From a virus, in the IMG/VR virus record IMGVR_UViG_3300035698_020937, positions 1 to 33,572 of that record: a stretch of DNA of 33,572 nucleotides, one strand, 5' to 3'. Shown here one piece after another: positions 4,838-32,560 of the stretch; the stretch's first letter is position 1; each line of letters starts with the position of its first letter. The notes under the pieces were generated by a model. That model was not told where the DNA came from, ran no database searches, and saw nothing but the letters and a program-made list of their open reading frames with translations. A program made the translations under genes and the position numbers.

Positions 4838-6142
4838 TTACTTTAAAATATCTGTAAAAACCTTCTTTAGAAACTCTACTTTATCAGTCCATAGAAATTC
4901 CTTTTTTGCCCTCTCTACACAATCCAAATCTACTAATTTTTCTTCCCCCACTTCTTTCCAAGATTTATATTCCTTTTCAAGAGCTTGTACATACTCCCAT
5001 ATATTTACAATAGGTCTCATATGTCCACTATCCATAGCTTGATTCATAAGTCCAACATTAGGAATTAAATGGCCAGTGTTCCCAAGCATTTCTGGAACTG
5101 CGCTATTTTTTGGAGCAATACTTCTCGTCCCGGCCGCCATAGATTCAATAAGACTTAAACCACACCCTTCCCCTAAAGTAGTCGTAAGATTTATATTTGC
5201 CGCATTATAAATTTGGTTTACCATCTCATTAGTTATAATTCCAGAATAGATATTCGCAGCATTTACGCTTATAACCTTATTATATACATCCTCATCTGTA
5301 AACCCAGCATTAAGTATGTGATTCTGTAAAATATTTGTACGACCTGGACCCATTGGAACTTCATTACTCATCATATGTAGGTACAAATGAACATCTAATT
5401 TTGGTTTATCCTGTAGCTCAACTACGTCGTCTGGCCCACACATATTTAGATCACAGTAAGTCTTGAATAGTGGATAAGCATTTCCGCATTTACATAGTTT
5501 ATATCCTTTAGCAAATAAGTTGTAGGCTCGTAGCGTAAAAGGTATCGCCTTCCTTGGTTGGAATCTATTTACATTAATAGCAGTAAATTTTCCATTCCAC
5601 CCGAATGAAGTTCTATGGCTTAATATTTCCTTATGTGGTAAAGGTTTATAAGTATCTGTATCTACTCCATGATACAATTTTTTGATACCTTTAACTTGTG
5701 GGAATCTTTCTTTGATTATTTTTATAGCCCAATCCGAATAAGTTATTACCGCATCTGCTTGATTAAATACATTTCCCCAAGCCTTAGAGAACGGATTACC
5801 ATCTACTGGGAAGTATACAACAATCTTTGTTTTAGGGTGAACTTCTCTTCTGACTACGTCTATAATATCAGAAATATGAAATATATCCTGAAACAGGAAT
5901 ATCAAATCTGGGTTTTCTTTCTTTACTAGGTGAATCAGTTTTTTATTTCCTAACATGTCGTCTCTACTAACAGGATATACAAAGTAACGTGATGTGTCGT
6001 ATTTTTTATCCCCATGGTAATTTATACCAAGAACGGTTACATCATAATCTTCATGCATATCTTTTAGCAAATTGTCTGCTACTTGGCCAAACCCCGTTGG
6101 TACCAAAAAGTCACACCAACAGAATAATTTCTTCTTTTCCAT
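4838..6142 (-). CDS. GT-B glycosyltransferase (GT4-like) with Cys-rich insert
   Basis: 434 residues. N-terminal Rossmann domain with a PTGFGQVADN glycine turn, a linker with LYHGVDTDTY, and a C-terminal donor-binding domain with GEGCGLSLIESMAAGTRSIA, the classic E-x7-E signature of retaining GT4 enzymes, followed by AVPEML. They transfer a sugar from a nucleotide-sugar. In phages the acceptor may be modified phage DNA, a virion protein or the host surface. Around residue 225 there is a Cys-rich insert (CKCG...C...C) that may bind zinc and is not standard for the family. A short gap separates it from the gene at 4766. Acceptor unknown. Confidence 0.85.
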   Translation of the reverse strand: MEKKKLFCWCDFLVPTGFGQVADNLLKDMHEDYDVTVLGINYHGDKKYDTSRYFVYPVSRDDMLGNKKLIHLVKKENPDLIFLFQDIFHISDIIDVVRREVHPKTKIVVYFPVDGNPFSKAWGNVFNQADAVITYSDWAIKIIKERFPQVKGIKKLYHGVDTDTYKPLPHKEILSHRTSFGWNGKFTAINVNRFQPRKAIPFTLRAYNLFAKGYKLCKCGNAYPLFKTYCDLNMCGPDDVVELQDKPKLDVHLYLHMMSNEVPMGPGRTNILQNHILNAGFTDEDVYNKVISVNAANIYSGIITNEMVNQIYNAANINLTTTLGEGCGLSLIESMAAGTRSIAPKNSAVPEMLGNTGHLIPNVGLMNQAMDSGHMRPIVNIWEYVQALEKEYKSWKEVGEEKLVDLDCVERAKKEFLWTDKVEFLKKVFTDILK

Positions 6143-6164
6143 ATTATCAATTGATTTTTAACGT

Positions 6165-6217
6165 AAAAAAAATGCTAGTAATTATATGTATATACATACT
6201 ATAATATAAGCATTTTT
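6165..6217 (-). terminator. Terminator after the small membrane-protein gene
   Basis: On the minus strand AAAAATGCT pairs with AGCATTTTT around an AT-rich inner repeat, and the 3' arm runs into eight T. It lies just after the stop at 6243 and before the glycosyltransferase start at 6142. A glycosyltransferase promoter may lie in the same AT-rich stretch but I cannot define it. Confidence 0.65.
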
Positions 6218-6242
6218 CTTGTTAAAATCAAACTTTTTCTTA

Positions 6243-6530
6243 CTAGGCCGCAGCTCTTTTTGCATCTGCCTGGGTATCGGTGTAGTAGTTGAAGAATTTT
6301 AACATTATACCTATTGCAAATGAACTAGATGCTATCAATACTTGGAGTACATTTGGGCTACCAAAGTAGCCTAAGTAGCCCAACGGTAGGGCGACAACCA
6401 ATATGAAGCCCATTAATAACGCATCAAACATACTTGCTTTTTTACACTTAGACAGCAATTCCACTGTCCAAAAAGGTTTTAATCCCATGATGAAAAATGG
6501 GATCGCCAAATATAAATTTGGATTCAGCAT
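6243..6530 (-). CDS. Small membrane protein, about three transmembrane segments
   Basis: 95 residues from the ATG at 6530, which has an AAGGAA SD about 5 bases upstream. The longer frame reaching 6647 would run into the terminator of the upstream RNA gene and is rejected. Three hydrophobic segments are visible: YLAIPFFIMG, ALLMGFILVVALPLGYLGYF, and VLQVLIASSSFAIGIML, with a short basic C-terminus ending AKRAAA. Size and layout allow a holin-like or superinfection-exclusion role, but nothing in the sequence decides between them. Confidence 0.7.
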   Translation of the reverse strand: MLNPNLYLAIPFFIMGLKPFWTVELLSKCKKASMFDALLMGFILVVALPLGYLGYFGSPNVLQVLIASSSFAIGIMLKFFNYYTDTQADAKRAAA

Positions 6531-6559
6531 CTTATTCCTTTCCTTGATTAAGATGAAAT

Positions 6560-6600
6560 AAAAAAATGCGGGTGACGGTACGATATAGTACCGCACACCC
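6560..6600 (-). terminator. Rho-independent terminator of the large RNA
   Basis: Minus strand: GGGTG..CGGTAC, loop TATATC, GTACCG.CACCC, then GCA and seven T. A strong GC stem with a perfect U-tract marks the 3' end of the 0.88-kb RNA. Confidence 0.88.
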
Positions 6601-7445
6601 TTGCCCAATTTACACTTTATATTGCGGTGAAACGCGGAGCGTTTCAACCAGAATTAACTGCGGTCCGTTGTCCCCCTCGGGAGGTGGGTTGGGGCGAATT
6701 TACCCCAGACCTTTATATTGTTATATATCAGATACCTACGGACTGGATCTATACTGCAGATATCCTGCAGGTGTCTCCGGGTCTTGGTACCCTGAGGGGA
6801 GACCCCCATGGGAAGATCAAATATAAGGCTTAACCCTGAAAATACGAATTACATTTAAGGTTAACGCCTGAAGAAGGTCCCTTTGAGGTCGCCGTACCCC
6901 GCCGGCCGATCGAACTCGAGCTGAGCGCTCGAATCTCGGCGGACGGAGCCGTCGTCTAAACTAGTCTGCCTGGTTGGGCGCCCGCCGGTCGACATATTAA
7001 TCATAACCCAAAATAAAAGGGAGATTAATGTCCGCCGGAGAATACCTGGCTAGGCCTGTCTGGCTAGTCCGCCGGGTGCACGCCCGGGCCCGCGGGCCCG
7101 GAAGGCGGCGCTTGCCCGACGTTGCCTGCAATGGCAATCTTTTCTTTGGTGGTCCTGAGGACAGTGTTGTTTTGGCCGAAGGCCCATCTTTGGAAAGATT
7201 GCTAGAATCTATAAGAACGAAACGTTCTTAAAAAAAAGGATTCTGTAAATTGGGTCCTATGAAAAACTTTCTATACTGTGAATAGGATCTCTTTTGTTGA
7301 AGGTTTAAACGCGCAAAATCCTGTGGTTTCTTCGAGGGATACACCCTTCGAACAAAGACAATCCTTTGACTTTTGAGGAGGGGGGAGCCCAAGAATAAAC
7401 CTGTGGTTTTTGTCTGCGTGAAATCGTCAACATAAGATCTCGTAT
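6560..7445 (-). ncRNA. Large structured non-coding RNA, about 0.88 kb (GOLLD/ROOL-class candidate)
   Basis: A GC-rich island in an AT-rich genome with no credible coding frame, but a complete transcription unit on the minus strand: promoter motif at 7451-7463 and a strong terminator at 6560-6600. It is full of local helices: AAGAACG/CGTTCTT closed by TTT, a UUCG-capped GGCC hairpin, GTCCTCAGGAC, TTCGA...TCGAA, GAAACGC/GCGTTTC, CTGCAG/CTGCAG, a perfect 18-base GC palindrome at 7084-7101, and a 9-bp helix joining 7194-7202 with 7134-7142 that encloses two hairpins. AAACCACAGG occurs twice near the 5' end. Size, ornate folding and phage location fit the giant phage RNAs GOLLD or ROOL. That class assignment is inference. 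Confidence 0.75.
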
Positions 7446-7450
7446 TCATT

Positions 7451-7463
7451 TTTCTTATACCAA
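7451..7463 (-). promoter_or_regulatory. Conserved phage promoter-like motif, copy 2 (large RNA)
   Basis: Minus-strand TTGGTATAAGAAAAATGA. It directly follows the terminator of the upstream operon and starts the 0.88-kb RNA, with transcription expected to begin near 7445. Confidence 0.75.
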
Positions 7464-7464
7464 G

Positions 7465-7493
7465 AAAAACATCTACGGGTACGTTCCGTACCC
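7465..7493 (-). terminator. Terminator of the retron/radical-SAM operon
   Basis: Minus strand GGGTAC GGAAC GTACCC followed shortly by a T5 run. It lies just after the stop at 7514 and abuts promoter copy 2, so one unit ends where the next begins. Confidence 0.6.
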
Positions 7494-7513
7494 AAATTGG
7501 CGCCTATAGCTAG

Positions 7514-8188
7514 CTAATCATGACACTTGTTACAATAACTGCAACTTGCGTTGCGAGTTATTTTCCCTGAATCGCAGGGACATGCTTCCTTAAAATTTGC
7601 TGATTTGATTTGTTCTACTCGCTTTTTACTAATATTAAAGAATATATCGAATTTATTATTAACTCGAATGGCTCTAAAGTCATCAGCAGTGCCAGTAAAA
7701 CAAAACTTTACTTTTGGGTTTTGTTTATATTTCTCTATCAAATTATAATTTAATAGGTTGTTCATGTCCAAACTAAACACCAGTGAAGTTAAGTTTTTTA
7801 ATTTCAGCAATTTAAGTATATCGCTATCAGAATCTGATGTTAAATTTTTTGATATTATAAAATATTTAAAATCTAAATTTGAAATAAATTCAAAATGTCC
7901 TGGGATATAGTCACCCGATCCATACATTCTGACAGGCAACTTAGAGAGTCTAGTAAGATCTTTTGCCTTACTACGACTTAGTTTTCTGTATTCTTTGTTT
8001 AATGTTTCCGCAAACAGTTTCCCGTTTTCTAAAGACAGTAAATTATTTTGTTTAATTTTAGCAACGTATGCTTTATAGATTCGCTCCATTGTGTTTACAT
8101 AACAATAGGAACAAAAATTTTTGCAAGTACCTTCTCTAAAGAAGTCTATTGATAAAATGGTTTTACTGTTTCTAGTAAACACATTCAA
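7514..8188 (-). CDS. Radical-SAM-like iron-sulfur protein
   Basis: 224 residues. Near the N-terminus is CKNFCSYCY, the Cx3Cx2C triad (Cys 22, 26, 29) that holds the 4Fe-4S cluster of radical SAM enzymes, here followed by aromatic Y as in the family. The middle looks like a shortened beta/alpha barrel (PVRMYGSGDYIPGHFEF as an SAM-binding-type turn). The C-terminus carries a second group of Cys (CPCD..., CSYCNKC) that could bind another cluster. Small for the family, resembling compact phage and plasmid radical-SAM proteins rather than a named enzyme. Substrate unknown. Last gene of the minus operon that includes the reverse transcriptase; no clear SD is visible. Confidence 0.7.
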   Translation of the reverse strand: MNVFTRNSKTILSIDFFREGTCKNFCSYCYVNTMERIYKAYVAKIKQNNLLSLENGKLFAETLNKEYRKLSRSKAKDLTRLSKLPVRMYGSGDYIPGHFEFISNLDFKYFIISKNLTSDSDSDILKLLKLKNLTSLVFSLDMNNLLNYNLIEKYKQNPKVKFCFTGTADDFRAIRVNNKFDIFFNISKKRVEQIKSANFKEACPCDSGKITRNASCSYCNKCHD

Positions 8189-8209
8189 AATTATTTGCGG
8201 TTTATACTA

Positions 8210-8398
8210 TCAATCGTATTTTGACGATACTCCTGCATCATACTCTCTTTGAGTAATTTCATCTATACGATCTAATTTTGCTTCTCTAATCTTGTTACTT
8301 ATATCTAGGGCTCCAATAATGTCCTTTTGTTTAGTGTACAAAGTTCTACTATTACTTCCCTTCTTCCCTGTTTCTATTTCAATTTTGTAGTAGTTCAA
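8210..8398 (-). CDS. Small hypothetical protein
   Basis: 62 residues, best start a TTG at 8398 with only a weak GAGAAAA upstream. The sequence is charged and ends REYDAGVSSKYD. The pattern of an N-terminal strand (YYKIEIETG) followed by a helix with Lys/Arg/Glu repeats is common in small phage proteins. It lies between the small membrane protein and the radical-SAM gene in the same orientation. Function unknown; start uncertain. Confidence 0.55.
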   Translation of the reverse strand: MNYYKIEIETGKKGSNSRTLYTKQKDIIGALDISNKIREAKLDRIDEITQREYDAGVSSKYD

Positions 8399-8440
8399 AT
8401 TTTTCTCTGTGTCCGGTTAGGGAATGTCTCTGGCTAGGTT

Positions 8441-8566
8441 TTATCTTTTTCTTGGTTTTCTTACTTTTTTTGTTTCTTCTTCTGCTTTCCAGCTTGCCCA
8501 AAAAGAAATTACTTGGGTTGTCGCAGCTATAGCAGCGTATCCGATAATGATTCCTAGCTCTTTCAT
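8441..8566 (-). CDS. 41-residue single-pass membrane protein
   Basis: Short frame MKELGIIIGYAAIAATTQVI..., one hydrophobic segment (about residues 4-24) followed by a strongly basic tail (KKVRKPRKR). AGAGGAAAA lies about 13 bases before the ATG, a long but possible SD spacing. It fits tightly between the stop at 8587 and the start at 8398, and the N-out/basic-in layout is coherent. A 60-residue plus-strand frame over the same bases is the likely shadow. It could be a small toxin, holin partner or retron-associated membrane peptide; no direct evidence for any. Confidence 0.5.
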   Translation of the reverse strand: MKELGIIIGYAAIAATTQVISFWASWKAEEETKKVRKPRKR

Positions 8567-8586
8567 ATTTACAATAAGGTTTTCCT

Positions 8587-9075
8587 CTAGAATTTTAGCA
8601 AACTAAAATAGAAATTAACAGCTTCCATTAGAAGCAATTTTGCTTGCTTTTCTACTATTGAGGGTTTTAGTGATCCAAGTAAACGCGATATAAACACTTT
8701 ATCTTTATAAATTCGATAGTTATACCCAAATTTATATTTGTATTTTCTACCACTATTGGGTAATACAAATTCTTGCTTCAGATATATCCGTGTTACACCA
8801 TTGTTTCTATTAATGTATAATTTCATTACATATATGCCCTTTAAAGTATGTAAGGGTGTTTCGATAATGTCAAATACATTTCTAAGATCGGTAAACCATG
8901 GAAACTTACTATGTAAATATTCTGGTGTTAAACATCCGAATGGTAGAAGCACACTTTTGTGGTCATGGGTATTTAATAAAGTTCTTATTACCCAGTTTGA
9001 ATAGGAACTCTCTCCAAATTGTAAAGCTGCGTTAATAAACGGTCCCCTTTCGTTGGATTGAGTTGTCGTATCCAT
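8587..9075 (-). CDS. Protein translated with the reverse transcriptase (possible retron accessory protein)
   Basis: 162 residues. The ATG at 9075 has a GAGG about 10 bases upstream, inside the end of the reverse transcriptase gene, and the two genes overlap by 88 bases. Tight overlap implies joint translation, as for retron effector proteins. The protein is rich in Tyr, Lys and Phe with many short strands (KYKFGYNYRIYKDKVFISRLL) and a hydrophobic C-terminal helix. I recognise no known retron effector domain. If the reverse transcriptase is a retron, this is the first candidate for its effector. Confidence 0.65.
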   Translation of the reverse strand: MDTTTQSNERGPFINAALQFGESSYSNWVIRTLLNTHDHKSVLLPFGCLTPEYLHSKFPWFTDLRNVFDIIETPLHTLKGIYVMKLYINRNNGVTRIYLKQEFVLPNSGRKYKYKFGYNYRIYKDKVFISRLLGSLKPSIVEKQAKLLLMEAVNFYFSLLKF

Positions 9076-9935
9076 TCTATGTAGCCTCTAAGCTTTATGT
9101 ATTCATCATAAGATAGCTTTTTACCATCCCTTATATAATTATGTAATTGCGCTCGTAGATTTCTCCATTTATATTTTGGTACTCCGAGTATGTCGTTTAC
9201 AACAACTCCTGTAATTACCTGTCTTCTATGTGGCCTCATTATACGAGTTTTTTTCTCATTTATTTCTAAATCAACGTTATTAATTTCTTTAACAATTAAT
9301 TTATATATCGCATCCATATTAAAATCTAATTCTTTATGTGACAAAGTAATATCGTCTGCGTACCGAGTATACGTTAATTCGTACTCGTCTGCGATTTCCT
9401 GGATATTTTCGTCCGTCTTGTGCATATAAAGATTTGCTAATGCTGGACTTGTTGGGGCTCCCTGTGGGAGTTGTCCCTTATACAGAGTTAGGTCTGCTAA
9501 CAATTTTATAACTTCTGCACGATCTTCTACACTAGTTTCCAACCATCCGATTGTATTAGCTCTGTGTACTAAATGGTGCCATAATCGCATTATATGGTTT
9601 CGTTTAATACTATTGAAGAAGTTAGAGATATCTGTGCTCAGATAAAGTTTGTTATCTAAGTGCCTCCGCGCCCCTTCCTTCGGACTCATTCCAACTCTAA
9701 AGCCAACTGCGGCTGGATGTACAGAAAACTTATATAATAGTTTATGTAAAATAAATTTTTGAATTTCTTTCAATTCACCAGATGGAGCATCAATCCATCT
9801 AGTCTTCTTACCTACTTTTTTAAGTGGGTACGATAAATATCTTTCTGGAGATTCAATTATCTCCTGAAGCCTTATCGGAGGCTTTTCTGTTAATTCATAT
9901 ATATTCAATGTTTTTAAATGGTTGGAGGGGAACAA
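8988..9935 (-). CDS. Retron-type reverse transcriptase
   Basis: 315 residues, the normal retron length. Motifs in order: HPAAVGFRVG and the GARRH variant of the retron NAxxH region (about 72-92), first catalytic Asp in STDISNFFNSI (about 100), LPQGAPTSPALANLYM (about 155, the PQGxxxSP of retrons rather than the group II or DGR form), the YADDITLS active site (about 191), ITGVVVND (the VTG thumb motif), and a C-terminal WIRQLNPTKGDRLL typical of retrons. It makes multicopy single-stranded DNA from an RNA usually encoded just upstream. The best start is the TTG at 9935, with GAGGGG 9 bases upstream locked in a hairpin. No DGR repeats or maturase domain. Confidence 0.87.
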   Translation of the reverse strand: MFPSNHLKTLNIYELTEKPPIRLQEIIESPERYLSYPLKKVGKKTRWIDAPSGELKEIQKFILHKLLYKFSVHPAAVGFRVGMSPKEGARRHLDNKLYLSTDISNFFNSIKRNHIMRLWHHLVHRANTIGWLETSVEDRAEVIKLLADLTLYKGQLPQGAPTSPALANLYMHKTDENIQEIADEYELTYTRYADDITLSHKELDFNMDAIYKLIVKEINNVDLEINEKKTRIMRPHRRQVITGVVVNDILGVPKYKWRNLRAQLHNYIRDGKKLSYDEYIKLRGYIEWIRQLNPTKGDRLLTQLYNLERVPIQTG

Positions 9936-9950
9936 AATATCGTTCCCCTC
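9925..9950 (-). promoter_or_regulatory. Hairpin covering the SD and start codon of the reverse transcriptase
   Basis: GAGGGGAAC (9950-9942) pairs with GTTCCCCTC (9933-9925), nine base pairs around an eight-base loop. The 5' arm is the likely SD and the 3' arm begins at the TTG start, so folding should block ribosome entry. It could also be the 3' boundary hairpin of the upstream RNA. Confidence 0.65.
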
Positions 9951-9954
9951 GCCA

Positions 9955-10136
9955 TGGTCATACTTTGCCCATCGAGGCTAGGGAACTAGACCGATGATGG
10001 TTATGCGTCGAGTGGCGGCAAGAAGGCCGCTACCCAGAGAACTGTGACGACACGAGACTTCTCCTCACGCATATAACTAAACAACGCTGGCGATTCGCCA
10101 GCTAGCTTAATTTTCATTAAGCATATACTATGACCA
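9955..10136 (-). ncRNA. Candidate retron msr-msd RNA
   Basis: About 180 bases ending 20 bases before the reverse transcriptase. An 8-bp end helix joins TGGTCATA (10136-10129) with TATGACCA (9962-9955), as expected for the a1/a2 repeats. Inside are two hairpins of msr type, GCTTAAT-GAAA-ATTAAGC and GCTGGCG-ATT-CGCCAGC, then a larger stem (GTTATATGCGT with ACGCATAAC, two-base bulge) that encloses GCGGC/GCCGC and would be the msd part. AGC occurs next to the hairpins as a possible branch site. Position, size and layout fit a retron; the branch G and cDNA ends cannot be fixed from sequence alone. Confidence 0.55.
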
Positions 10137-10164
10137 GTTACATGTAACTTAGTACAAAAATTGT

Positions 10165-10533
10165 ACAATTTATGATTAGGCCAGGCCCCTACAAGGATTA
10201 GAAGGCCGGGTATCGAAATTCAGGAAGATTTACATTTTATCCGGAATTTTGTAACGGACGTGCTTTCCTGGGGGTTAACTCTAATCTTATTTCGCCGGGC
10301 CAAGGACCGGAGAGATAAGATTTGTGGTACGCCCTGGGAAGGCGACGGCCGTGAGAAATTCAGAAGATAAAAAGTAAAGTTCTCTGAACTTCGTAACCGG
10401 CTTACCTGGCCTTAATCATCCATTCATATGTCCTGAAAACATTCAGAACGTACAACGTGGACGAAACGTCCACAGTATTACTAGTGTCTACAATTAGATG
10501 GGAGTAACCCACCTTAATGCAACTAAGTTACAA
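10165..10533 (-). ncRNA. Second structured RNA domain upstream of the retron
   Basis: About 370 non-coding bases rich in helices. A long-range helix, ATGATTA(A)GGCCAGG at 10419-10405 with CCTGGCCTAATCAT at 10185-10172, 14 pairs with one bulge, encloses a 220-base domain. In it AATCTTAT/ATAAGATT (10322-10315 with 10290-10283) forms an 8-bp stem around a CCGG repeat. Outside it, GTGGACG-TTT-CGTCCAC (10473-10457) and GGG-TTACT-CCC are clean hairpins. Together with the retron part this makes a 0.6-kb RNA, about the size of ROOL. It could be an extended retron RNA, an independent ornate RNA, or both. No group I or II intron core is evident. Confidence 0.55.
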
Positions 10534-10544
10534 ATTCTTATAAA
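10534..10544 (-). promoter_or_regulatory. Degenerate promoter-like motif at the head of the 0.6-kb RNA
   Basis: Minus strand TTTATAAGAATTTG keeps the TATAAGAAT core of the conserved motif but not the TTGG before it. It sits at the end of the upstream gene, exactly where transcription of the structured RNA could begin. Confidence 0.35.
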
Positions 10545-10547
10545 TTA

Positions 10548-10910
10548 TTAAAACAGTTTTAATTGCTTCTTTAATGCTTCCACTTTAATTTTTTCTAATG
10601 AGATAAATGTGAAAGCATCTTTTACCATACTTTTGGTACACGGCGCTATGTCAGCTGGACTTTGTATTGCCCAAGGATACAGTTTTTTATGATACTCGGC
10701 ACCGATTTCCATTATTGATATAAAATAAAATCCTACAAACTGTAATATCCCATATGTGTTAAAACGAGATTCTATATTTACTTCTTTAATTAGATTAGAA
10801 TGGACCGGTATCGTCGTCGAGTGCGCTGTCTTCATCGTCAACAACGAATCCATCGTAATCGTCAATTGGCTCTGCAGCCACTTCTCCAATTCTCCCTCGG
10901 AGATATCCAT
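10548..10910 (-). CDS. Hypothetical protein overlapping the preceding gene out of frame
   Basis: 120 residues. ATG at 10910 with GGAG 8 bases upstream. Its first 116 bases overlap the 71-residue frame ending at 10795, in another reading frame. The part after the overlap, with FVGFYFISIMEIG and a helical Lys-rich C-terminus (IKVEALKKQLKLF), has the look of normal coding sequence. The overlapped N-terminal part is rich in Thr, Ser and Leu and is less convincing, so the true start may be different. Function unknown. It directly precedes the structured RNA of the retron region. Confidence 0.5.
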   Translation of the reverse strand: MDISEGELEKWLQSQLTITMDSLLTMKTAHSTTIPVHSNLIKEVNIESRFNTYGILQFVGFYFISIMEIGAEYHKKLYPWAIQSPADIAPCTKSMVKDAFTFISLEKIKVEALKKQLKLF

Positions 10911-11010
10911 TTTTTTTCTCCATAGCTTCAGGAATCAACGCTGAAGCGAGTAAATTTATAAATTTATCAACAAGGGTGATAATTTGCTTACCCAGTTCTT
11001 TTTTTTCCAT
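10795..11010 (-). CDS. Small acidic-tailed protein (SSB-like C-terminal tip)
   Basis: 71 residues. A helical N-terminal half (MEKKELGKQIITLVDKF) is followed by a basic patch (KKNGYLRGRIG) and a very acidic tail ending DDEDSALDDDTGPF. The tail resembles the acidic Pro-Phe tip of bacterial single-stranded DNA-binding proteins (DDDIPF), which binds many repair enzymes, but there is no OB fold in so short a protein. Promoter copy 3 lies 57 bases upstream, so this is the first gene of the operon containing the reverse transcriptase. The SSB-tip mimic idea is inference. Confidence 0.6.
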   Translation of the reverse strand: MEKKELGKQIITLVDKFINLLASALIPEAMEKKNGYLRGRIGEVAAEPIDDYDGFVVDDEDSALDDDTGPF

Positions 11011-11066
11011 AAATTTTTTTTACTTGATTAAATATAAAATTATACCTATATTAAGTATAATATCAT

Positions 11067-11080
11067 TTATCTTATACCAA
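11067..11080 (-). promoter_or_regulatory. Conserved phage promoter-like motif, copy 3 (retron operon)
   Basis: Minus strand TTGGTATAAGATAAATGA, upstream of the genes starting at 11010. It lies in the divergent gap before the RNA polymerase gene, which starts 22 bases away on the other strand. Confidence 0.75.
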
Positions 11081-11101
11081 GAAATGGAGAAATAAGTCGA
11101 G

Positions 11102-14100
11102 ATGAAAAATATATTTTTACCAACATTCCAAAACAAAATTATTAAGGATGCAACAGTTAAAGCCTTTAGCGATCTATTTCCTATAGAGCATAAGGGGAGG
11201 AAAGTGTTGGTATCTAATGTTACTGTGGACGATACTCTAAATGATGAGGATTTTCCACTACAACGAGAAATAAAACTTAATAGACAGACTTGGCATTATC
11301 CTATTTATGCAGACGTTGAAATGATAGATTCTGAAAGTGGAAGAGTAATCAGCTCTGCAAAGAAAGTCAAACTAGCTTCTATCCCTAAAGTGACTAATCG
11401 GTTTACCACACTAATTGACGGTAATGAATATCAAACAATAAATCAATTACGTCGTAAAGCTGGTGTATATTCACGTATAAAAAAGAATGGTGAATTGGAA
11501 AGTGAGTTTAATCTATCTAAAGGAATGAACTTTAAAATGCAGCTGGATCCAGTATCTCAAGCATTTAGTATTACCATAGCTGGAAGAAATTACAAATATA
11601 AATTATGGTCTTTATTGAAGATATTAGGAGTTACTGACGATGAAATGACAAAAGTTTGGGGAACCAGGTTACTTAATGTTAATAAGCAAAAATCTATTAA
11701 CACTGAAGCTTCTGAGATGACCTCGCTGTACAAAGTTATATTCGGTAAGGATGCTAAAGACTATAACGAAGTTATGTCTGGTCTAAGTCAATACTTCAAT
11801 GAAGAGACTGAAATAAATCCAGAAATAACAAAGATTACTCTTGGAGAAGCTCTAGATAAGGTAAATTCAAAAACTCTACTTAAGGCATCTCAAAAGCTAC
11901 TTAATATTACTAAAGAAAAGGACGTTCCGGATGAACGTGATAGTCTAATCTTTAAAAAGATATATTCGGTAGATGACTTACTCTTAGAACATTTAAATAA
12001 GACTAGTGCGGGAATTGCTGAAAGAATAAAAAGAAATATGGAGCTTAGAGAAAAGGTTAGAGAGATAATCCCTTCAAATACATTCACTAAGCCTATCAGA
12101 GATTTCTTTACAACAGGAGATTTAACAGCTACTCCACCACAGACAAACCCTATAACTATGGCTACAGATTGGCGTAAAACTACGCCTATGGGGACCGGTG
12201 GTATTCAAAGTAGTCACTCTATCACCATAGAAGCCAGAGATCTTCAACCAACGCATTTAGGATTCTTGGACCCTACAGCTACTCCGGAATCATTAAAGGT
12301 AGGGGTAAATGTCGGACTTAGCTCTGAGACAAGTAAAAGAGGAAACGATATTGTAACTCCTACATATAATAGAGAGGGCAAAGTAAAATGGTTAACTCCT
12401 TTAGAATTCTATTCAGCTAAAGTGGGATATCCCGATCAATTTAAATTGAAGAAAGGGGTTATTGTGCCGAGTTATGATATTGTAAATGCTATGTACAAAG
12501 GAAAGCCGATGAGAGTAAAGGCAAGCGAAATTGCCTATTGGCTTAGATCTCCGAGAGTAATGTTTGCTCATAATACAAATTTGGTTCCATTTTTAGCTAA
12601 TGTTCAAGGCAACAGAGCTTCTACTGGGGCACGTATGTTAACTCAGGCTTTACCTATAGATGAAAAAGAAGAACCATTGGTACAAACTTGGAGAGATAAT
12701 TCATCTACTTATGAAAAAAAACTTGGAGGATTTTTGAATCCTCAATTACCATATGGTGAAAAAGATACAATTAGAGAAGGCACTATAACAAAAGTAGATA
12801 AAGATTATATCCATGTAGATGTGGATGGAAAATCTGAAAAGATAGGATTATACAAAAATTTTCCACTTAACCAAGATGGTTATTTAGATTCAACTCCAAT
12901 AGTAAAAGCTGGAGATAAAGTAAAAAGTGGGGAACCCTTAGCAGAGACAAATTATTCAGTAAACAAAGGTACTCTGGCGCTGGGGAAGAACCTTAATGTG
13001 GCTTATATGACATATAAAGGATATAATTTTGAAGATGGTGCTGTTATTACGGAAACTGCTGCTAAGAAAATGTCCCATACTATGTTACATAGGGTAAACG
13101 ATTTCTTTAGTCCAAAGATTTCCATATTTGATATTAAAAAGTTTAAAGCATGGTTTCCCGACATCTTAACTCCGGATAATTCTAAAAAGTTAGATGAAAA
13201 AGGATTCCCAAGAATTGGTCAGACTTTTCAACCTGGAGAAGCCGTATTAGTATACCTGAAAGAGAAAGAAATGGATAGTGCTGAAAGGGCACTAAAGAAA
13301 TTAGATAAATTTACATTTGGCCAATATGATAAGGTAGTGAAGTTGTGGGATGAAGATGAAACTGGGGTAATAACTGATGTTAGAGTTTCTGGACGTAACA
13401 TCGATATCTACCTAAAATCTACTCATCCTTTTAAAGAAGGGGATAAACTGTCTGGGCGTTACGGTAATAAGTATATTGTTACTAAAATTATACCAGATAC
13501 TACTGCCCCACATAGAAAAAATGGAACAGCAATAGACGTTATGTTAAATGCCCACGGTGTTCCGGGTCGTATGAATGTAGGGCAACTTCTTGAAACAGCT
13601 GCTGGAAAAATAGCAGAAAAAAAAGGTAAACCTTATGTTGTAAAAAATTTTGATAATCCAGATGAAGATATGTCCAAAAAAATACTCGAAGAGCTTAAAG
13701 AGGAAGGTATTGAGCCGGATGAAGTTTTATATGATGGTAAGGGTGGAAAAGCTTTTGAGAAGCCTATATTTACTGGTAAACAATACTTCTTAAAATTAAG
13801 ACACATCGTTAAGAAAAAGATGGGTTCTCATAATTATGGAGTTTATGATATAGATGAGGTTCCAGGAGGTAAAGGAGCACAGTCTACTGGTATCCTTGAT
13901 ACATATACTTATCTAGCTCATGGAGCTAAAGAGAATCTTAGGGAAATGTCAGAGATAAAAGGTAGACGTAATGATGAATATTGGAGAAACCTTCAGTTTG
14001 GACTACCTCCAGGAAAACCTAATAGAAGTTTTGTATTTGATAAATTAGATACATACCTAAAAGGTATGGGAGTAAATACAGAGAAAAAGGGAAATAAACT

Positions 14101-17100
14101 CAGAATCTTTCCATTAACAGATACTGAAATGACTAGAATGAGTAACGGGGAGATTAAAGATCCTGGAGCAGTTCTAGTGGGTAAAAATTTAACTTCTAGG
14201 AAAGATGGTATATTTGATAATACTATAACCGGGGGCGCTAGAGGTACTCACTGGTCACATGTAGATTTAGCAATACGTATTCCAAATCCAATGTACGAGG
14301 CAACTATTAAAAGAGTTCTTGATCTTTCTGAAAAAGATTATGACGCTATTATATCTGGTACTAAGGAGTTGGATGGGAAAACTGGAATAGATGCTATTGT
14401 GGAAAAAGTTAAAACATTAGATGTAAAAAAAGAATTAGAAGGTTTAAGAGATGAATTAAAGATAGCTCCAAAAACAAACGTAAATAAACTTAATACAAAA
14501 ATTAGGTATTTAGAGGCATTAAACAAGTTAAACATAGAACCTTACGATGCCTACACAACAACCAAAATGCTTTTAATACCACCAATGTTTAGACCAGCAT
14601 ACCCACTCCCATCGGGAGATATAATGGTCAGTCCTATAAACAAGCATTATAAAGACGTAGGTTTGGTAAATAAAGGCTTGAAAGCTGCGTTAGAAAGAGA
14701 AGACATACCGGAAGCAGATATCCTAAAAGCCAAAAAAGCTCTTTATAATAGCTATAAAGCTATGCAGGGGTTTACAGATCCTATAAACTTTACAGGTGAA
14801 AAGTACAAGGGCTATTTACAAGAAATGGGTGATCTTAAACGTGGACTTATCCATGGTAAGAATTGGTCAAAACGACAAGACATTAGTGCAAGAAGTACAA
14901 TTACTGTTGAACCTTCTCTTGGTTTAGATGAAGTTGGGATTCCTAAAAAAATGGCTTATAAAATGCTTAAGCCTCTTATAATACGTGAACTTAAAGAATC
15001 TGGAATTAAGGCAACTCAGTCTCTTAAGGAGTACGAAGAAGAGTCTCCTTCGGCAATGAAAGCACTGCAAAGGGTATTAGAAGTGAGACCTCTTATACTT
15101 AACAGAGCTCCGTCATTACACAAACACGGTGTGCAGGCGTTTAAACCTGTGTTAATGGATGGAAAAACTATACGTCTAAATCCTCTTATTGTAAATGGGT
15201 TTAATGCTGATTTTGATGGGGATACCATGTCTGTTATGACTCCCATAAGTAAAGAAGCGGTAGAAGAAGCTAAAGGGATGATGCCAAGCAGAATACTATT
15301 TAAACATGGTGGAAACAACTTAGTGCCAAGTTTAGGACAGGACTATGTATTTGGATTACATAGACTTAGTAAAATAGAAGCTAAATCTGATAAGAAGTTT
15401 AAGTCTTTTAATGATGCTAAAAAATCTGGTATAAAATGGACAACCAGCTTTGATCTAAATGGAACTAAGGTAACTATTGGTCAGTATATGATTAATGCAG
15501 AGCTTCCGGAAACCTTACGTGACTACGAAAGAGAAATGACCGCGAAAGAGACTGAAAGGTTGCTTGAATTACTTGGAAGAAAGTATTCATCTTATTTTAG
15601 AGAAGTGATAGATAGTTGGAAAAATTTGGGATCTATGTATGCTTACACTCGTGGAAATACACTGTCATTGACTGATATGTCTATCGATAGAAGCTTTAGG
15701 GATTCCCTCTTAAAGAAAGAACTTCCTAAGATTGAGGCTATGAAAACTCCAGAACAAAGAGCTGTTGCTAGAGAAGCTTTAACTGCTAAGATACAAGCAA
15801 TGCAGGATAAAAAACTATCTGGAACTACTAACAGTTTCTATGAGATGATCGATTCTGGATCTATTTCTAAAGGTAAAGCGGGGAATGTTAGACAAATCTT
15901 AACATCTCCTGGAGTTCTAAGAGATACAAAAGGTGTTCCAATAGATGTATTTTTTGATAAAGGTTATGCTGAAGGTATGGGTACCTTTGATTACTTTAAC
16001 TCTATGTATGGTGTTAGAAAAGGTGTTGTAGATAGAGCTGTAAATACAAGAGAGTCTGGTGCGTTAAATAAGTCTTTATTGAATGTTACTAGAAGAATGT
16101 TAATAAGCGAAGAGGACTGTGGTACGATTAAAGGGCTAGTATTTGGAATTGAAGATAAAAATATTCAAGGAAGAGCCGCATTAAAAACCAGAGACGGTGT
16201 TGTAAAAAGAAACGAAATAATAACTGGTGAAGTTATAATAAAAGCTAAACAACGTGGAATAAAAAAATTGGAAACTAGAAGCCCGCTAACTTGCGAAACT
16301 GTGGACGGGCTTTGCCAGGTATGTTACGGACTTCTTCCTCATGGGGAATTACCACATGTTGGCACAAATGTTGGAATTTTAGATTCTCAGGCTGTCACTG
16401 AAAGAGCTACACAACTCACTATGCAGACTTTCCATACCGGAGGAGCGGGTGGAGGAGGCATTACTGCTGGATTCCCTAGGCTAGAACAGATACTTAAAGT
16501 ACCTGAAAAACTTTCTGGAAAAGCTACATTATCCTCTGTTAGGGGTAATATTAAGAGTATTAAGAGAAATGAAACTGGAGGACACGTAGTAACAGTGGAC
16601 ACTGGTAAAACAGAAAAAGTTTTTATAGTTCCTCCTGGTAGAAAAGTAATTATAAAATCAGGTGCTAAAATCAAGAAAGGGGATCCATTATCTGATGGAA
16701 TTTTGAAACCTCAGGAATACAGTGAATTTAAAAGCCATTTAGAAGCTCAGAAGTATATGGTTAGAGAAGCTTCTAATGTATATGGTGGTGGGTTTTATGA
16801 TAAAACTTTTGAAACTATTATAAAAGGAATATCAGATAATGCGGAAGTTACAGAAGCCCCAGATGACAGTGGTTTCCTAAGAGGAGATAAAGCATCAATA
16901 TCTTATATTTCTAGTATGAATAAACAACGTAAAGCGAAAGGACTTAAACCAATAACATTTAAACCATATTTTAAGACAATTGATTTATCAAATCAAGATG
17001 TGGAAGACTGGATGACTGGTATAACAACTAATAGAGTCAAGGCTGGCCTAATTACAGGAGCGTCTAAGGGACTTTACGCTAATTTAAAAGGTAAGGATCC

Positions 17101-17170
17101 AGTTCCTGCCTATATTTATGGAAATAACTTTGGACGAAATACTAACTACGAAAAGGGAGAGTTTTACTAA
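11102..17170 (+). CDS. Fused RNA polymerase beta and beta-prime subunit
   Basis: 2022 residues, the catalytic core of multisubunit RNA polymerase in one chain. Beta marks in order: NRASTGARMLTQALP (about 500), GYNFEDGAVITE (about 640), GRYGNKYIVTKI and HGVPGRMNVGQLLE (about 780-830), and the C-terminal GGKGAQSTGILDTYTYLAHGA. Beta-prime marks: DGIFDNTITGG, IPPMFRPAYPLPSG, KRQDISARSTI, LILNRAPSLHKHGVQAF, the NADFDGD metal-binding loop (1368), the second zinc site (EEDCGT plus CETVDGLCQVC near 1731), and the trigger-loop region TQLTMQTFHTGG. The first beta-prime zinc finger and part of the clamp are missing, replaced by a short link. Closer to bacterial enzymes than phiKZ-type phage polymerases. 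Alpha and sigma are not in the window. It transcribes phage genes, perhaps from the conserved motif. The SD (GGAG) is 12 bases upstream. Confidence 0.95.
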   Translation: MKNIFLPTFQNKIIKDATVKAFSDLFPIEHKGRKVLVSNVTVDDTLNDEDFPLQREIKLNRQTWHYPIYADVEMIDSESGRVISSAKKVKLASIPKVTNRFTTLIDGNEYQTINQLRRKAGVYSRIKKNGELESEFNLSKGMNFKMQLDPVSQAFSITIAGRNYKYKLWSLLKILGVTDDEMTKVWGTRLLNVNKQKSINTEASEMTSLYKVIFGKDAKDYNEVMSGLSQYFNEETEINPEITKITLGEALDKVNSKTLLKASQKLLNITKEKDVPDERDSLIFKKIYSVDDLLLEHLNKTSAGIAERIKRNMELREKVREIIPSNTFTKPIRDFFTTGDLTATPPQTNPITMATDWRKTTPMGTGGIQSSHSITIEARDLQPTHLGFLDPTATPESLKVGVNVGLSSETSKRGNDIVTPTYNREGKVKWLTPLEFYSAKVGYPDQFKLKKGVIVPSYDIVNAMYKGKPMRVKASEIAYWLRSPRVMFAHNTNLVPFLANVQGNRASTGARMLTQALPIDEKEEPLVQTWRDNSSTYEKKLGGFLNPQLPYGEKDTIREGTITKVDKDYIHVDVDGKSEKIGLYKNFPLNQDGYLDSTPIVKAGDKVKSGEPLAETNYSVNKGTLALGKNLNVAYMTYKGYNFEDGAVITETAAKKMSHTMLHRVNDFFSPKISIFDIKKFKAWFPDILTPDNSKKLDEKGFPRIGQTFQPGEAVLVYLKEKEMDSAERALKKLDKFTFGQYDKVVKLWDEDETGVITDVRVSGRNIDIYLKSTHPFKEGDKLSGRYGNKYIVTKIIPDTTAPHRKNGTAIDVMLNAHGVPGRMNVGQLLETAAGKIAEKKGKPYVVKNFDNPDEDMSKKILEELKEEGIEPDEVLYDGKGGKAFEKPIFTGKQYFLKLRHIVKKKMGSHNYGVYDIDEVPGGKGAQSTGILDTYTYLAHGAKENLREMSEIKGRRNDEYWRNLQFGLPPGKPNRSFVFDKLDTYLKGMGVNTEKKGNKLRIFPLTDTEMTRMSNGEIKDPGAVLVGKNLTSRKDGIFDNTITGGARGTHWSHVDLAIRIPNPMYEATIKRVLDLSEKDYDAIISGTKELDGKTGIDAIVEKVKTLDVKKELEGLRDELKIAPKTNVNKLNTKIRYLEALNKLNIEPYDAYTTTKMLLIPPMFRPAYPLPSGDIMVSPINKHYKDVGLVNKGLKAALEREDIPEADILKAKKALYNSYKAMQGFTDPINFTGEKYKGYLQEMGDLKRGLIHGKNWSKRQDISARSTITVEPSLGLDEVGIPKKMAYKMLKPLIIRELKESGIKATQSLKEYEEESPSAMKALQRVLEVRPLILNRAPSLHKHGVQAFKPVLMDGKTIRLNPLIVNGFNADFDGDTMSVMTPISKEAVEEAKGMMPSRILFKHGGNNLVPSLGQDYVFGLHRLSKIEAKSDKKFKSFNDAKKSGIKWTTSFDLNGTKVTIGQYMINAELPETLRDYEREMTAKETERLLELLGRKYSSYFREVIDSWKNLGSMYAYTRGNTLSLTDMSIDRSFRDSLLKKELPKIEAMKTPEQRAVAREALTAKIQAMQDKKLSGTTNSFYEMIDSGSISKGKAGNVRQILTSPGVLRDTKGVPIDVFFDKGYAEGMGTFDYFNSMYGVRKGVVDRAVNTRESGALNKSLLNVTRRMLISEEDCGTIKGLVFGIEDKNIQGRAALKTRDGVVKRNEIITGEVIIKAKQRGIKKLETRSPLTCETVDGLCQVCYGLLPHGELPHVGTNVGILDSQAVTERATQLTMQTFHTGGAGGGGITAGFPRLEQILKVPEKLSGKATLSSVRGNIKSIKRNETGGHVVTVDTGKTEKVFIVPPGRKVIIKSGAKIKKGDPLSDGILKPQEYSEFKSHLEAQKYMVREASNVYGGGFYDKTFETIIKGISDNAEVTEAPDDSGFLRGDKASISYISSMNKQRKAKGLKPITFKPYFKTIDLSNQDVEDWMTGITTNRVKAGLITGASKGLYANLKGKDPVPAYIYGNNFGRNTNYEKGEFY

Positions 17171-18976: not shown

Positions 18977-19002
18977 CTTATAAATCCTTTCGTTTTAAGT
19001 TC

Positions 19003-19019
19003 ATTATTCTTATACCAAA
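19003..19019 (-). promoter_or_regulatory. Conserved phage promoter-like motif, copy 4
   Basis: Minus strand TTTGGTATAAGAATAATGA, the best match to the consensus, 27 bases upstream of the ATG at 18976. Confidence 0.78.
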
Positions 19020-19908: not shown

Positions 19909-19976
19909 TATAAGTATCCCCCCTTAATTAGTGTATAATATAGTATACAGTAACTGAGTGCTAAATGCAAGCACTC

Positions 19977-19992
19977 TTTATTCTTATACCAA
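19977..19992 (-). promoter_or_regulatory. Conserved phage promoter-like motif, copy 6
   Basis: Minus strand ATTGGTATAAGAATAAAGA, located just after the terminator of the upstream gene and 69 bases before the ATG at 19908. Confidence 0.75.
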
Positions 19993-20002
19993 TTCTGAAG
20001 GT

Positions 20003-23826: not shown

Positions 23827-24067
23827 CAGTTACGCCCTCCTCGTAAGTTTTTACAAAGTCATCATTAATTTCTGTCCCACATTTTCTACAAATTAATGAA
23901 TCTACTGGAATTACTAAGGCTTTTCCGGTATGGGATAGTATAGGGGACATGTAGCGTAGTTTTACAGCAGGGATAAAGAAGGCATTTCCACATTCAGTGC
24001 ATACCATTTCTTTTGTATTACGTAAATCGATTTTTGGCTGTTGCGGTTGATCGATAGGTTTTTGCAT
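23783..24067 (-). CDS. Zinc-ribbon protein
   Basis: 94 residues. Two CxxC pairs (CTEC near residue 22 and CRKC near 60) about 35 residues apart form a classic zinc ribbon; the strands between (FFIPAVKLRYMSPI, ALVIPVDSLI) fit. Many phage zinc-ribbon proteins bind nucleic acid or act as transcription or replication cofactors. An acidic C-terminus follows. The ATG overlaps the RNA ligase stop (TAATG), so it is co-translated with the RNA repair cluster. Confidence 0.75.
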   Translation of the reverse strand: MQKPIDQPQQPKIDLRNTKEMVCTECGNAFFIPAVKLRYMSPILSHTGKALVIPVDSLICRKCGTEINDDFVKTYEEGVTDEIKNVITSEESAG

Positions 24068-25131
24068 TATTTATGTATGATTTTGCCATCTTTATAGATA
24101 GCTAGTGAGTCACCATGAGGACGTACCATTTTAAATATATAATCACGCCATCTATCAAGTTTACCATCTATCATGGATAGTATAACTGGGTGATGTTTGT
24201 ATCTTAAGGTTTCCTGGTAAAGTGATTTTCTATCAGTAATTCCTTTTTTATGTATTTCAAAAATTGCCTGCTTACAACAAGTCTCGATACTTTTGAAACA
24301 CTTCTTAATACTTAATATCGTATTCTTAATATCTTCGTGAGCTTCATCTGGGATGTCCTTAAGGTTTGGGAATTCTAACCCGTCTCTTAAATGTTCCCAT
24401 ATAGCAACCTTGCTTAGATTAAATAATATTTTATGTATACGAACATATTCTGGAGATTTTAGTTTTACTTGGAAACCGCCTACAAAGGTTAGTACGTAAC
24501 CTTCTCTATTTTCCCATTTACCAGTATCAATAGACTCCTTTAATTTTCTTATGGGGATGCTAGTTCCATAACATTCTATTGTTGGGAAAGAATTTTTAGT
24601 CCAGGTACTCTGGATTTTACCGGTTTCGTTATTTATAACTCCTAATGCATAAAGATCTCTTATGCCTTTATACTCTACTACGATTTTGTTCTCTGGATGA
24701 ATTAATTCAAATAGTATAGTATTATTATTATAGGCATAGTCCTTCATGTAATCGTATTTTTCTTTCCAAATTTCTCTTGCCCACTCAGCTTGGTCAGATT
24801 CAAAGGAGCCACGGGAAGAAATAATAACTTCATCGTTATACTTTGTCGTTATTATAAGAGACCCATCCATCTTTTCATGAACTTGGTAAGGAGCTGCTGG
24901 TATCCGATCCGAATCAATTTCATCATAATTAAAAAACTTTGGAAACGGCCTAGCTATTATATTTCCATATTTATCTAAAATCAAGCCTCTACACATTGTT
25001 GTATAGTAATCCCATAACTTTTCAAATTGCACTTCTGGAGTATAGTTATATATCCACAAATCAAGTTTTGGGTGTTTACGTCTTGTGATAAGACCTTCAA
25101 CTAGATAAGATTTTGGTATATTTAGTATCAT
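24067..25131 (-). CDS. RNA ligase, T4 Rnl1-like
   Basis: 354 residues, near the length of T4 Rnl1 (374). Nucleotidyltransferase motifs are complete: motif I HEKMDGSLI with catalytic Lys 87, motif III-type FELIHPENKIVV, motif IV REGYVLTF, and motif V VKLKSPEYV. The N-terminal CRGLIL and FPKFFNY patterns are also Rnl1-like. It joins 5'-phosphate and 3'-hydroxyl RNA ends with ATP, in T4 to repair tRNA cut by the host anticodon nuclease PrrC. It neighbours a second ligase, a kinase/phosphatase and a nucleotidyltransferase. The start ATG overlaps the upstream stop (CCATGA). Confidence 0.9.
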   Translation of the reverse strand: MILNIPKSYLVEGLITRRKHPKLDLWIYNYTPEVQFEKLWDYYTTMCRGLILDKYGNIIARPFPKFFNYDEIDSDRIPAAPYQVHEKMDGSLIITTKYNDEVIISSRGSFESDQAEWAREIWKEKYDYMKDYAYNNNTILFELIHPENKIVVEYKGIRDLYALGVINNETGKIQSTWTKNSFPTIECYGTSIPIRKLKESIDTGKWENREGYVLTFVGGFQVKLKSPEYVRIHKILFNLSKVAIWEHLRDGLEFPNLKDIPDEAHEDIKNTILSIKKCFKSIETCCKQAIFEIHKKGITDRKSLYQETLRYKHHPVILSMIDGKLDRWRDYIFKMVRPHGDSLAIYKDGKIIHK

Positions 25132-25403
25132 GGCATTTTGATAGAGTTCCTAAATTGATCTATTTTATTTTGGAGTTGATCGGTAATGATTATTGTGGAA
25201 GTATTTTTCTTAAGTTCTATTTTGACGAATGTAGCCACTTCCTCAATAAAGTCTTCTACTTTTTGTATCAAGCCATACTCTTCTTCAGTTTCTACTACAC
25301 AACTTAATGGAGATTTTACGTCAAAAGGGTAGCCCATCACTCCAACACATACCTTATATTTCATGCGCCAACATGTTATACATTCTTTATTTACTGTAGC
25401 CAT
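25128..25403 (-). CDS. Hypothetical protein between two RNA ligases
   Basis: 91 residues. A CxxC (CITCW near residue 8) plus two further Cys (C19, C35) in the N-terminal half may bind a metal; the C-terminal half is an amphipathic helix with NTSTIIITDQLQNKIDQF. Start and stop both overlap neighbours (TAATG and CCATGA), so it is translated in step with the two ligases. No known domain. The position makes a role in RNA repair likely but not shown. Confidence 0.65.
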   Translation of the reverse strand: MATVNKECITCWRMKYKVCVGVMGYPFDVKSPLSCVVETEEEYGLIQKVEDFIEEVATFVKIELKKNTSTIIITDQLQNKIDQFRNSIKMP

Positions 25404-32121: not shown

Positions 32122-32130
32122 AACTAAAAA

Positions 32131-32489: not shown

Positions 32490-32546
32490 AAAAATCTTAA
32501 TCTAAATAAACAACGCGTATTTTATGTAAAAAGCCGCATCATCATA

Positions 32547-32560
32547 GATCTTATACCAAA
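32547..32560 (-). promoter_or_regulatory. Conserved phage promoter-like motif, copy 7 (tmRNA)
   Basis: Minus strand TTTGGTATAAGATCTATGA, about 60 bases before the tmRNA 5' end; the leader would be trimmed by RNase P. It places tmRNA under the same promoter class as the other units. Confidence 0.72.

What the first reader, a model, noticed from the sequence alone, without database searches (positions are those of the whole stretch)
6560..7463. Free-standing 0.88-kb structured RNA gene with promoter and terminator
A GC-rich island with many hairpins, a perfect 18-base GC palindrome, long-range helices, no coding frame, a promoter motif at its head and a strong terminator at its end. Size and phage context fit GOLLD or ROOL, the giant phage RNAs whose role is unsolved.
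Basis: partly seen in the sequence, partly recalled or inferred. Interest (0 to 1): 0.85.

Follow-up and report, generated by a model that had tools for sequence, protein, structure and literature searches.

The report
Phage retron RNA carrying restriction-site array
This phage makes a long non-coding RNA, laid out like a retron RNA that a reverse transcriptase would copy into DNA, whose copied part is a natural polylinker of about two dozen mostly different 6-bp restriction-type sites; unrelated versions occur in at least 17 related phages, so it may be a decoy against bacterial restriction enzymes.

Summary
In detail: window 6560-7464 is an ORF-less, strongly folded RNA gene on the MINUS strand, with a phage promoter (7464-7446) and an intrinsic terminator (6600-6560). 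It is not GOLLD or ROOL: no Rfam hit. In 10 of 18 related phages the unit has retron ncRNA anatomy: terminal repeats a1/a2, a candidate branch G right after a1 (A|G in 16 of 33 top stems against 5.8% at random positions, p=7e-12), a CG-NNN-CG msr hairpin with varying stem, and a nearby retron-type RT (closest solved relative: Ec86 RT). The surprise lies in the msd: an array of perfect 6-bp palindromes, 428 in 18 phage arrays against 136 expected. The length is exactly six (4->6 extension 0.54, 6->8 back to 0.27). G-U near-palindromes are not enriched, so the signal is at DNA level. Sites are rarely repeated within an array (47 against 94 expected). Arrays share no sequence and turn over completely while flanking genes stay 75% identical. 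I found no description in the papers I could search. Best explanation: a phage retron whose cDNA is a collection of restriction sites acting as decoy for host type II enzymes. Array and layout are shown by computation; cDNA synthesis and decoy function are inferred.

The parts
7446..7464 (-). phage promoter motif CTTGGTATAAGAAAAATGA
   Evidence: 5 copies in window, 0.13 expected; conserved upstream of RNAP-divergent gene in relatives
7255..7445 (-). leader domain of the transcript (own closed fold, AACCACAGG twice), role unknown
7244..7254 (-). a1 repeat CCCAATTTACA, followed by candidate branch G at 7243 (CA|GA context)
7213..7229 (-). msr hairpin AAGAACG-TTT-CGTTCTT
   Evidence: same CG-NNN-CG cap in relatives
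6615..7212 (-). msd (presumed cDNA template)
   Evidence: 24 six-bp palindromes, 21 distinct, 10.5 expected
6722..7099 (-). palindrome array core: GGGCCC CCGCGG CCCGGG GTGCAC AGGCCT GTCGAC GGCGCC ACTAGT AGCGCT CTCGAG CGATCG CGGCCG GCCGGC GTTAAC CCATGG GGTACC CTGCAG GATATC and others
6604..6614 (-). a2 repeat TGTAAATTGGG (pairs a1, 11 bp)
6560..6600 (-). intrinsic terminator with 7 T
8988..9935 (-). retron-type reverse transcriptase (RYADD, ITG region Y, xAxxH region X)
8587..9075 (-). accessory protein overlapping the RT 3' end; homologues follow the RT in about 15 phages; no family or fold match
10143..10533 (-). second retron ncRNA candidate of the locus (a1 TTGTAACTTA|G, hairpin GTGGACG-TTT-CGTCCAC, a2 TAAGTTACA); no palindrome excess
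9955..10136 (-). third retron ncRNA candidate (a1 TGGTCATA|G, hairpin CTGGCG-AAT-CGCCAG, a2 TATGACCA), immediately upstream of RT; weaker, its A|G stem ranks third

Best explanation
The RNA is a retron ncRNA (msr-msd) of a phage-encoded retron with several ncRNAs and one RT. The RT, primed at the G after a1 in the a1/a2 stem, would copy the msd into DNA during infection. In this ncRNA the msd has evolved into a polylinker: a dense, hypervariable set of mostly different 6-bp palindromes. The cDNA (as duplex after second-strand synthesis, or through palindrome-palindrome duplexes) presents recognition sites for many type II enzymes in many copies and competes with the phage genome for host restriction endonucleases. 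Shown here by computation: transcription unit, retron anatomy, adjacent retron-type RT, selection for exactly 6-bp, DNA-level, rarely repeated palindromes inside the msd, rapid turnover. Inferred: cDNA is made, it is or becomes double-stranded, and it acts on restriction enzymes.
For: Retron anatomy: a1|G..a2 brackets the array in window, L034, L007, L009, L016, L028, L105, L098, L218 and L233; A|G junction 16/33 against 5.8% at random, p=7e-12; msr hairpin with variable stems and fixed CG-NNN-CG cap, almost only in these gaps; RT like Ec86 RT, E=6.7e-35, with retron motifs; in L105 the order is a1, hairpin, array, a2, RT start. Array: 428 sites against 135.7 in 18 arrays; by maximal length 4-bp 0.94x, 6-bp 2.92x; 4->6 0.541, 6->8 0.272; confined to msd, not msr; Watson-Crick 279 against 125, G-U 166 against 149, A-C 233 against 203, so not RNA pairing; repeats within arrays 47 against 94+-7, while other 6-mer repeats are not depleted. 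L233 has 32 sites, all different, in 411 nt. Palindromes with no type II enzyme I know of: 16 against 12.9; the rest 323 against 104. Only two marginal windows besides the arrays passed the same threshold in the RNAP-anchored loci; bacterial retron loci show no array of mostly distinct sites. Turnover: L104/L109. Size logic: a ~200-kb genome has about 50 copies of any 6-bp site, which a multicopy decoy can outnumber, but about 800 of any 4-bp site, which it cannot.
Against: No cDNA or msDNA was observed. The msd here (about 600 nt) is far longer than in classical retrons. A retron cDNA is single-stranded, and single-copy palindromes cannot pair within one molecule, so restriction enzymes would need second-strand synthesis or dimers. 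The array-bearing ncRNA is 1.5 kb from the RT in the window, with other ncRNA candidates nearer. For 8 of 18 arrays the bracketing A|G stem was not the top hit or was not found (L012, L078, L099, L109, L008, L234, L238, L104). Several RT-bearing relatives lack an obvious array (L010, L014, L020, L049, L106, L112). The list of palindromes without known enzymes is from memory.
Confidence: 0.55

Rival explanations
1. Retron ncRNA is right, but the msDNA with its sites is a sensor or bait, not a competitor: cutting or methylating it by a host (or rival phage) enzyme triggers a response through the accessory protein.
For: Bacterial retrons are RT/msDNA/effector modules; a conserved protein overlaps the RT gene in about 15 phages.
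Against: The accessory protein matches no effector family or fold; a trigger on the infected cell would seldom help a phage.
Confidence: 0.15
2. The array works in the phage genome itself (sacrificial or recombinogenic restriction island); its lying inside a retron ncRNA is incidental.
For: Signal is at DNA level; the rest of the loci is not depleted of 6-bp palindromes.
Against: Arrays lie in the msd, not the msr, inside a1/a2 in 10 phages, with terminators and in some a phage promoter; a cut in the genome is harmful wherever it falls.
Confidence: 0.12
3. Palindromes act in RNA (or cDNA) as kissing-loop or dimerisation sites that assemble a multimer, as loops do in GOLLD and ROOL cages.
For: Self-complementary 6-nt loops are typical kissing elements; RNA is strongly folded.
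Against: G-U self-complementary hexamers not enriched; palindromes are not preferentially paired or unpaired in RNA or cDNA folds, are not set in hairpin loops, and often overlap in tandem.
Confidence: 0.06
4. A new GOLLD/ROOL-like giant phage RNA.
For: Size, phage context, free-standing gene with promoter and terminator.
Against: No Rfam hit; retron features; no conserved sequence among relatives.
Confidence: 0.03

Closest known systems
Retron-Eco1 (Ec86) and bacterial retrons
   Same: RT of the same kind (E=6.7e-35 to the solved Ec86 RT) with region X/Y motifs; a1/a2 terminal repeats with the priming G at the end of a1 (the CAGA context seen here is that of Retron-Eco2, PMC6868368); msr stem-loop with a 3-nt loop closed by G-C (Ec86 msr recalled from memory)
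   Different: Encoded by a large phage as a conserved gene block; several ncRNA candidates for one RT; msd about 250-650 nt; msd is a hypervariable palindrome array; accessory protein unknown; no recognised toxin or effector
GOLLD and ROOL RNAs
   Same: Phage-borne, 0.6-0.9 kb, highly structured, own transcription unit
   Different: No covariance-model hit; no tRNA inside; neighbouring retron-type RT and a1/a2 anatomy
Phage anti-restriction DNA mimics (Ocr, ArdA; from memory)
   Same: Proposed purpose: occupy host restriction enzymes
   Different: Here the mimic would be nucleic acid with real recognition sites, specific to 6-bp type II sites, made by reverse transcription
ICP1 0.8-kb abundant non-coding transcript (PMC7567579)
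   Same: Large unexplained phage ncRNA
   Different: The passages read mention no RT or palindrome array; not tested here

Membership tests
Retron | RT with retron region X (NAxxH) and region Y (VTG) | tested here: met
   Alignment A3: region X with invariant H and region Y [VI]TG in all 14; RYADD nearly invariant; PADLOC and PDB retron hits. In the window N->G and V->I; variants at these positions are known among retron RTs
Retron | Complementary a1/a2 ends of the ncRNA with priming G at the end of a1 | tested here: met
   11-bp a1/a2 in window; 16/33 A|G against 5.8%, p=7e-12; new arrays L233, L218, L098 fit
Retron | msr stem-loop bound by the RT | tested here: met
   CG-NNN-CG hairpin with varying stem in the gaps of nearly all relatives; presence only, binding itself not testable here
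Retron | ncRNA next to its RT | tested here: inconclusive
   Window array 1.5 kb downstream of RT with two other ncRNA candidates directly upstream; directly upstream of RT in L105, and within 1 kb upstream in L238 and L233
Retron | Production of branched msDNA | not testable with these tools
   Needs experiment
GOLLD / ROOL | Match to the Rfam covariance model | tested here: not met
Restriction decoy | Enrichment of palindromes of one type II length, at DNA level, as a non-redundant set | tested here: met
Restriction decoy | Relief of restriction in vivo | not testable with these tools
   Needs experiment

The most novel reading that the evidence does not exclude
Large phages use reverse transcription to make a nucleic-acid decoy: a retron cDNA that displays a rapidly evolving, non-redundant library of type II restriction sites, so that one small locus counters dozens of restriction specificities at once.
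Probability: 0.5. Interest if true: 0.97.

Novelty: new variant of a known kind. Interest (0 to 1): 0.93.

Why it matters
A natural polylinker inside a phage retron would be a new use of retrons (known so far chiefly as bacterial anti-phage modules) on the phage's side, and a new class of anti-restriction strategy: competition by site-bearing DNA instead of protein mimics or site avoidance. The arrays would also record which restriction specificities these phages meet, and could serve as long, hypervariable natural msd templates for DNA production. Even if the decoy idea is wrong, selection for exactly 6-bp, mostly non-repeated palindromes in unrelated sequences at one locus needs an explanation.

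Tried and rejected
GOLLD/ROOL and any other Rfam family. DNA similarity to known phages (none) and to relatives (only the promoter). Diversity-generating retroelement: RT has retron motifs, and no near-repeat pair like a template/variable repeat was seen in 6000-11100. Kissing loops: flanking-stem matrix flat, G-U test negative, pairing test negative. Repeat avoidance as the reason for non-redundancy: other 6-mer repeats not depleted. AT-repeat false positive in L127 and a marginal hit in L003 inspected and discarded. Single-protein scans of the viral collection gave nothing; alignments were needed. Structure of the accessory protein: a decent model (pLDDT 81) but no significant fold match. 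Cloning-vector contamination: rejected because arrays differ in every phage, sit inside a1/a2, and an identical one (L099-L103) comes from five separate metagenome records.

Full report
WHERE IT LIES. The window is a 33,572-base IMG/VR virus contig of a large phage with a 2022-aa fused RNA polymerase (11102-17170; 29-32% identical to Vibrio phage D69 and Salmonella phage Arash), a tmRNA and a tRNA-Cys. Nothing similar at DNA level is in 50,697 phage records.

THE OBSERVATION. 6560-7464 is an ORF-less GC-rich island with a fold far more stable than shuffles on either strand. Strand: a motif CTTGGTATAAGA occurs five times in the window, 0.13 expected, always on the minus strand, among others just upstream of the tmRNA and at 7464-7446. 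It is also found upstream of the RNAP-divergent gene in relatives, so it is most likely a phage promoter. A 7-T intrinsic terminator on the minus strand ends at 6560. The RNA is thus about 0.88 kb, minus strand. Rfam finds nothing there, so GOLLD and ROOL are not supported.

RELATIVES. Single-protein scans failed, but an RNAP alignment gave 80 loci, a glycosyltransferase alignment 31 and an RT alignment 43 viral and 80 bacterial loci. In the nearest phages the gene order glycosyltransferase - gap - GP88-like - small ORF - RT - gap - RNAP is kept. The first gap holds an ORF-less, mostly GC-rich unit ending in a terminator, yet the gaps share no sequence beyond promoter and terminator scraps.

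THE ARRAY. Reading the gaps showed runs such as AGATCTCGAGCTC or GTTAACAGCTGAGGCCTGGTACC, like a laboratory polylinker. Counts against dinucleotide shuffles: window 28 against 13.6, L028 34 against 11.1 (z 8), L016 33 against 12.5, L012 38 against 15.4. With a fixed 400-base window and p<1e-5, the eight gap arrays and two marginal windows are the only hits in all RNAP-anchored loci. New arrays were then found in loci fetched through the glycosyltransferase and the RT: L105 (35 sites where 5.0 are expected, p=2e-18), L099, L233 (31 sites in 400 nt, all different, p=1e-12), L234/L259 and L238; L218 is weaker (p=4e-4). The closest bacterial retron loci have no comparable array: their best windows are dominated by repeated sites.

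WHAT THE ARRAY IS SELECTED FOR. (1) Length exactly six: the chance that a 4-bp palindrome extends to 6 is 0.541 (0.25 in shuffles), from 6 to 8 it is 0.272; palindromes of maximal length 4 are not enriched (0.94x) and those of 6 are 2.9x. (2) DNA, not RNA: Watson-Crick 279 against 125; hexamers with one G-U pair 166 against 149, with one A-C 233 against 203; palindromes are not favoured in or out of helices of RNA or cDNA and are not framed by stems. (3) Non-redundancy: 47 repeats within arrays against 94+-7 if types were drawn at random, while other 6-mers are not depleted in direct or inverted repeats. All 64 palindromes occur somewhere. (4) Types for which I recall no type II enzyme (ATATAT, TATATA, AAATTT, TAATTA, CTATAG, TAGCTA, TTGCAA, CGCGCG; from memory) are at 16 against 12.9, the others at 323 against 104. 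AT-only palindromes are less enriched in general (24 against 13.6), so this point is partly confounded. (5) Fast turnover: L104 and L109 are about 75% identical through terminator and glycosyltransferase, but the arrays cannot be aligned. Between the near-identical L234 and L259, 3 of 12 substitutions in 10.8 kb fall in the 306-nt array, one destroying CAGCTG and one creating CTGCAG (small numbers, seen after the fact).

THE RETRON. RT 8988-9935 carries retron motifs, hits PADLOC retron RTs and is closest among solved proteins to Ec86 RT. All 15 relatives tested have it. In the ORF-less gaps near the RT, and almost nowhere else, lies a hairpin with cap CG-NNN-CG and freely varying stem: window AAGAACG-TTT-CGTTCTT, L007 GGCTAGCG-TAT-CGCTAGCC, L009 CCCTAACG-CTA-CGTTAGGG, L105 AAACG-ATT-CGTTT and others. 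These hairpins were found by their pairing, so the varying stems illustrate covariation and are not an independent test of it. Upstream and downstream of it are complementary repeats whose upstream arm ends in A directly before a G: window CCCAATTTACA|G..TGTAAATTGGG, L034 AGCCAGCTCGCA|G, L007 GATGTTCGTA|G, L009 CTAACTCATA|G, L016 ATTTGTTTATA|G, L233 GCACTTCTATA|G, L218 GCGCAAGCTCACA|G, L098 ATAGTGTTTCTATA|GC. The A|G junction is at the best stem in 16 of 33 cases against 5.8% at random places (p=7e-12). This is the layout of retron msr-msd: terminal repeats with the priming G at the inner end of the 5' repeat, in TAGC, CAGA and similar contexts (PMC6868368). The array lies between hairpin and a2, that is in the msd, and the msr is not enriched. 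The window has two more such ncRNA candidates upstream of the RT (10143-10533 and 9955-10136); the second is weaker. Other phages have up to five hairpins (L049). In L105 everything is in classical order: a1, hairpin, array, a2, RT.

HOW IT MOST LIKELY WORKS. Transcribed from a phage promoter, the ncRNA is copied by the RT from the branch G into array cDNA. Many copies of many different 6-bp sites then compete with the phage genome for type II enzymes. Six is the length at which a decoy pays: a 200-kb genome has about 50 such sites but about 800 4-bp sites. Shown: unit, anatomy, selection pattern. Inferred: cDNA, duplex form, effect. An early retron study reports double-stranded DNA synthesis by a retron RT (Lampson 1990; I saw only its title, in the reference list of PMC6868368). 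The ssDNA problem is the main weakness.

LIMITS. Arrays were delimited by eye after discovery, so the fixed-window scans and the RT-guided finds are the cleaner tests. Several RT-bearing relatives have no array in what I could read. The literature search covered open PMC papers only and found no such description; a preprint or closed paper may exist.

Noticed in passing
window 7446-7464, 11063-11081, 19001-19019, 19975-19993, 32542-32560 (-): Phage promoter motif TTGGTATAAGAnnAATGA, all on the minus strand, conserved upstream of the RNAP-divergent gene in relatives.
   Followed up: partly
window 9955-10533: Two further retron-like ncRNA candidates in tandem directly upstream of the RT; relatives carry up to five hairpins (L049 1693-2655), so one RT seems to serve several ncRNAs.
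   Followed up: partly
window 8587-9075: Unknown protein overlapping the RT 3' end, conserved in about 15 phages; model with helices, six strands and a long C-terminal helix, no fold match.
   Followed up: yes
window 32128-32489 (-): Phage-encoded tmRNA with tag AKLGRALLIEPVY; tmRNA genes also predicted in L012, L014 and L016.
   Followed up: no
window 7476-7494 (-): A hairpin TGGGTACG-GAA-CGTACCCG with the same CG-NNN-CG cap just upstream of the promoter; terminator of the upstream gene or another retron element.
   Followed up: no
window 7255-7445 (-): Leader domain before a1 with its own closed fold and AACCACAGG twice; unexplained.
   Followed up: no
L234 and L259, about 7985-8110: 29-base tandem repeat containing CCTAGG next to the array, 4 copies in one and 5 in the other near-identical genome.
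   Followed up: no
window 24067-26359 and 30310-31509: Two RNA ligase-like genes and a further polymerase-like gene (phrog_23333) in the same contig.
   Followed up: no
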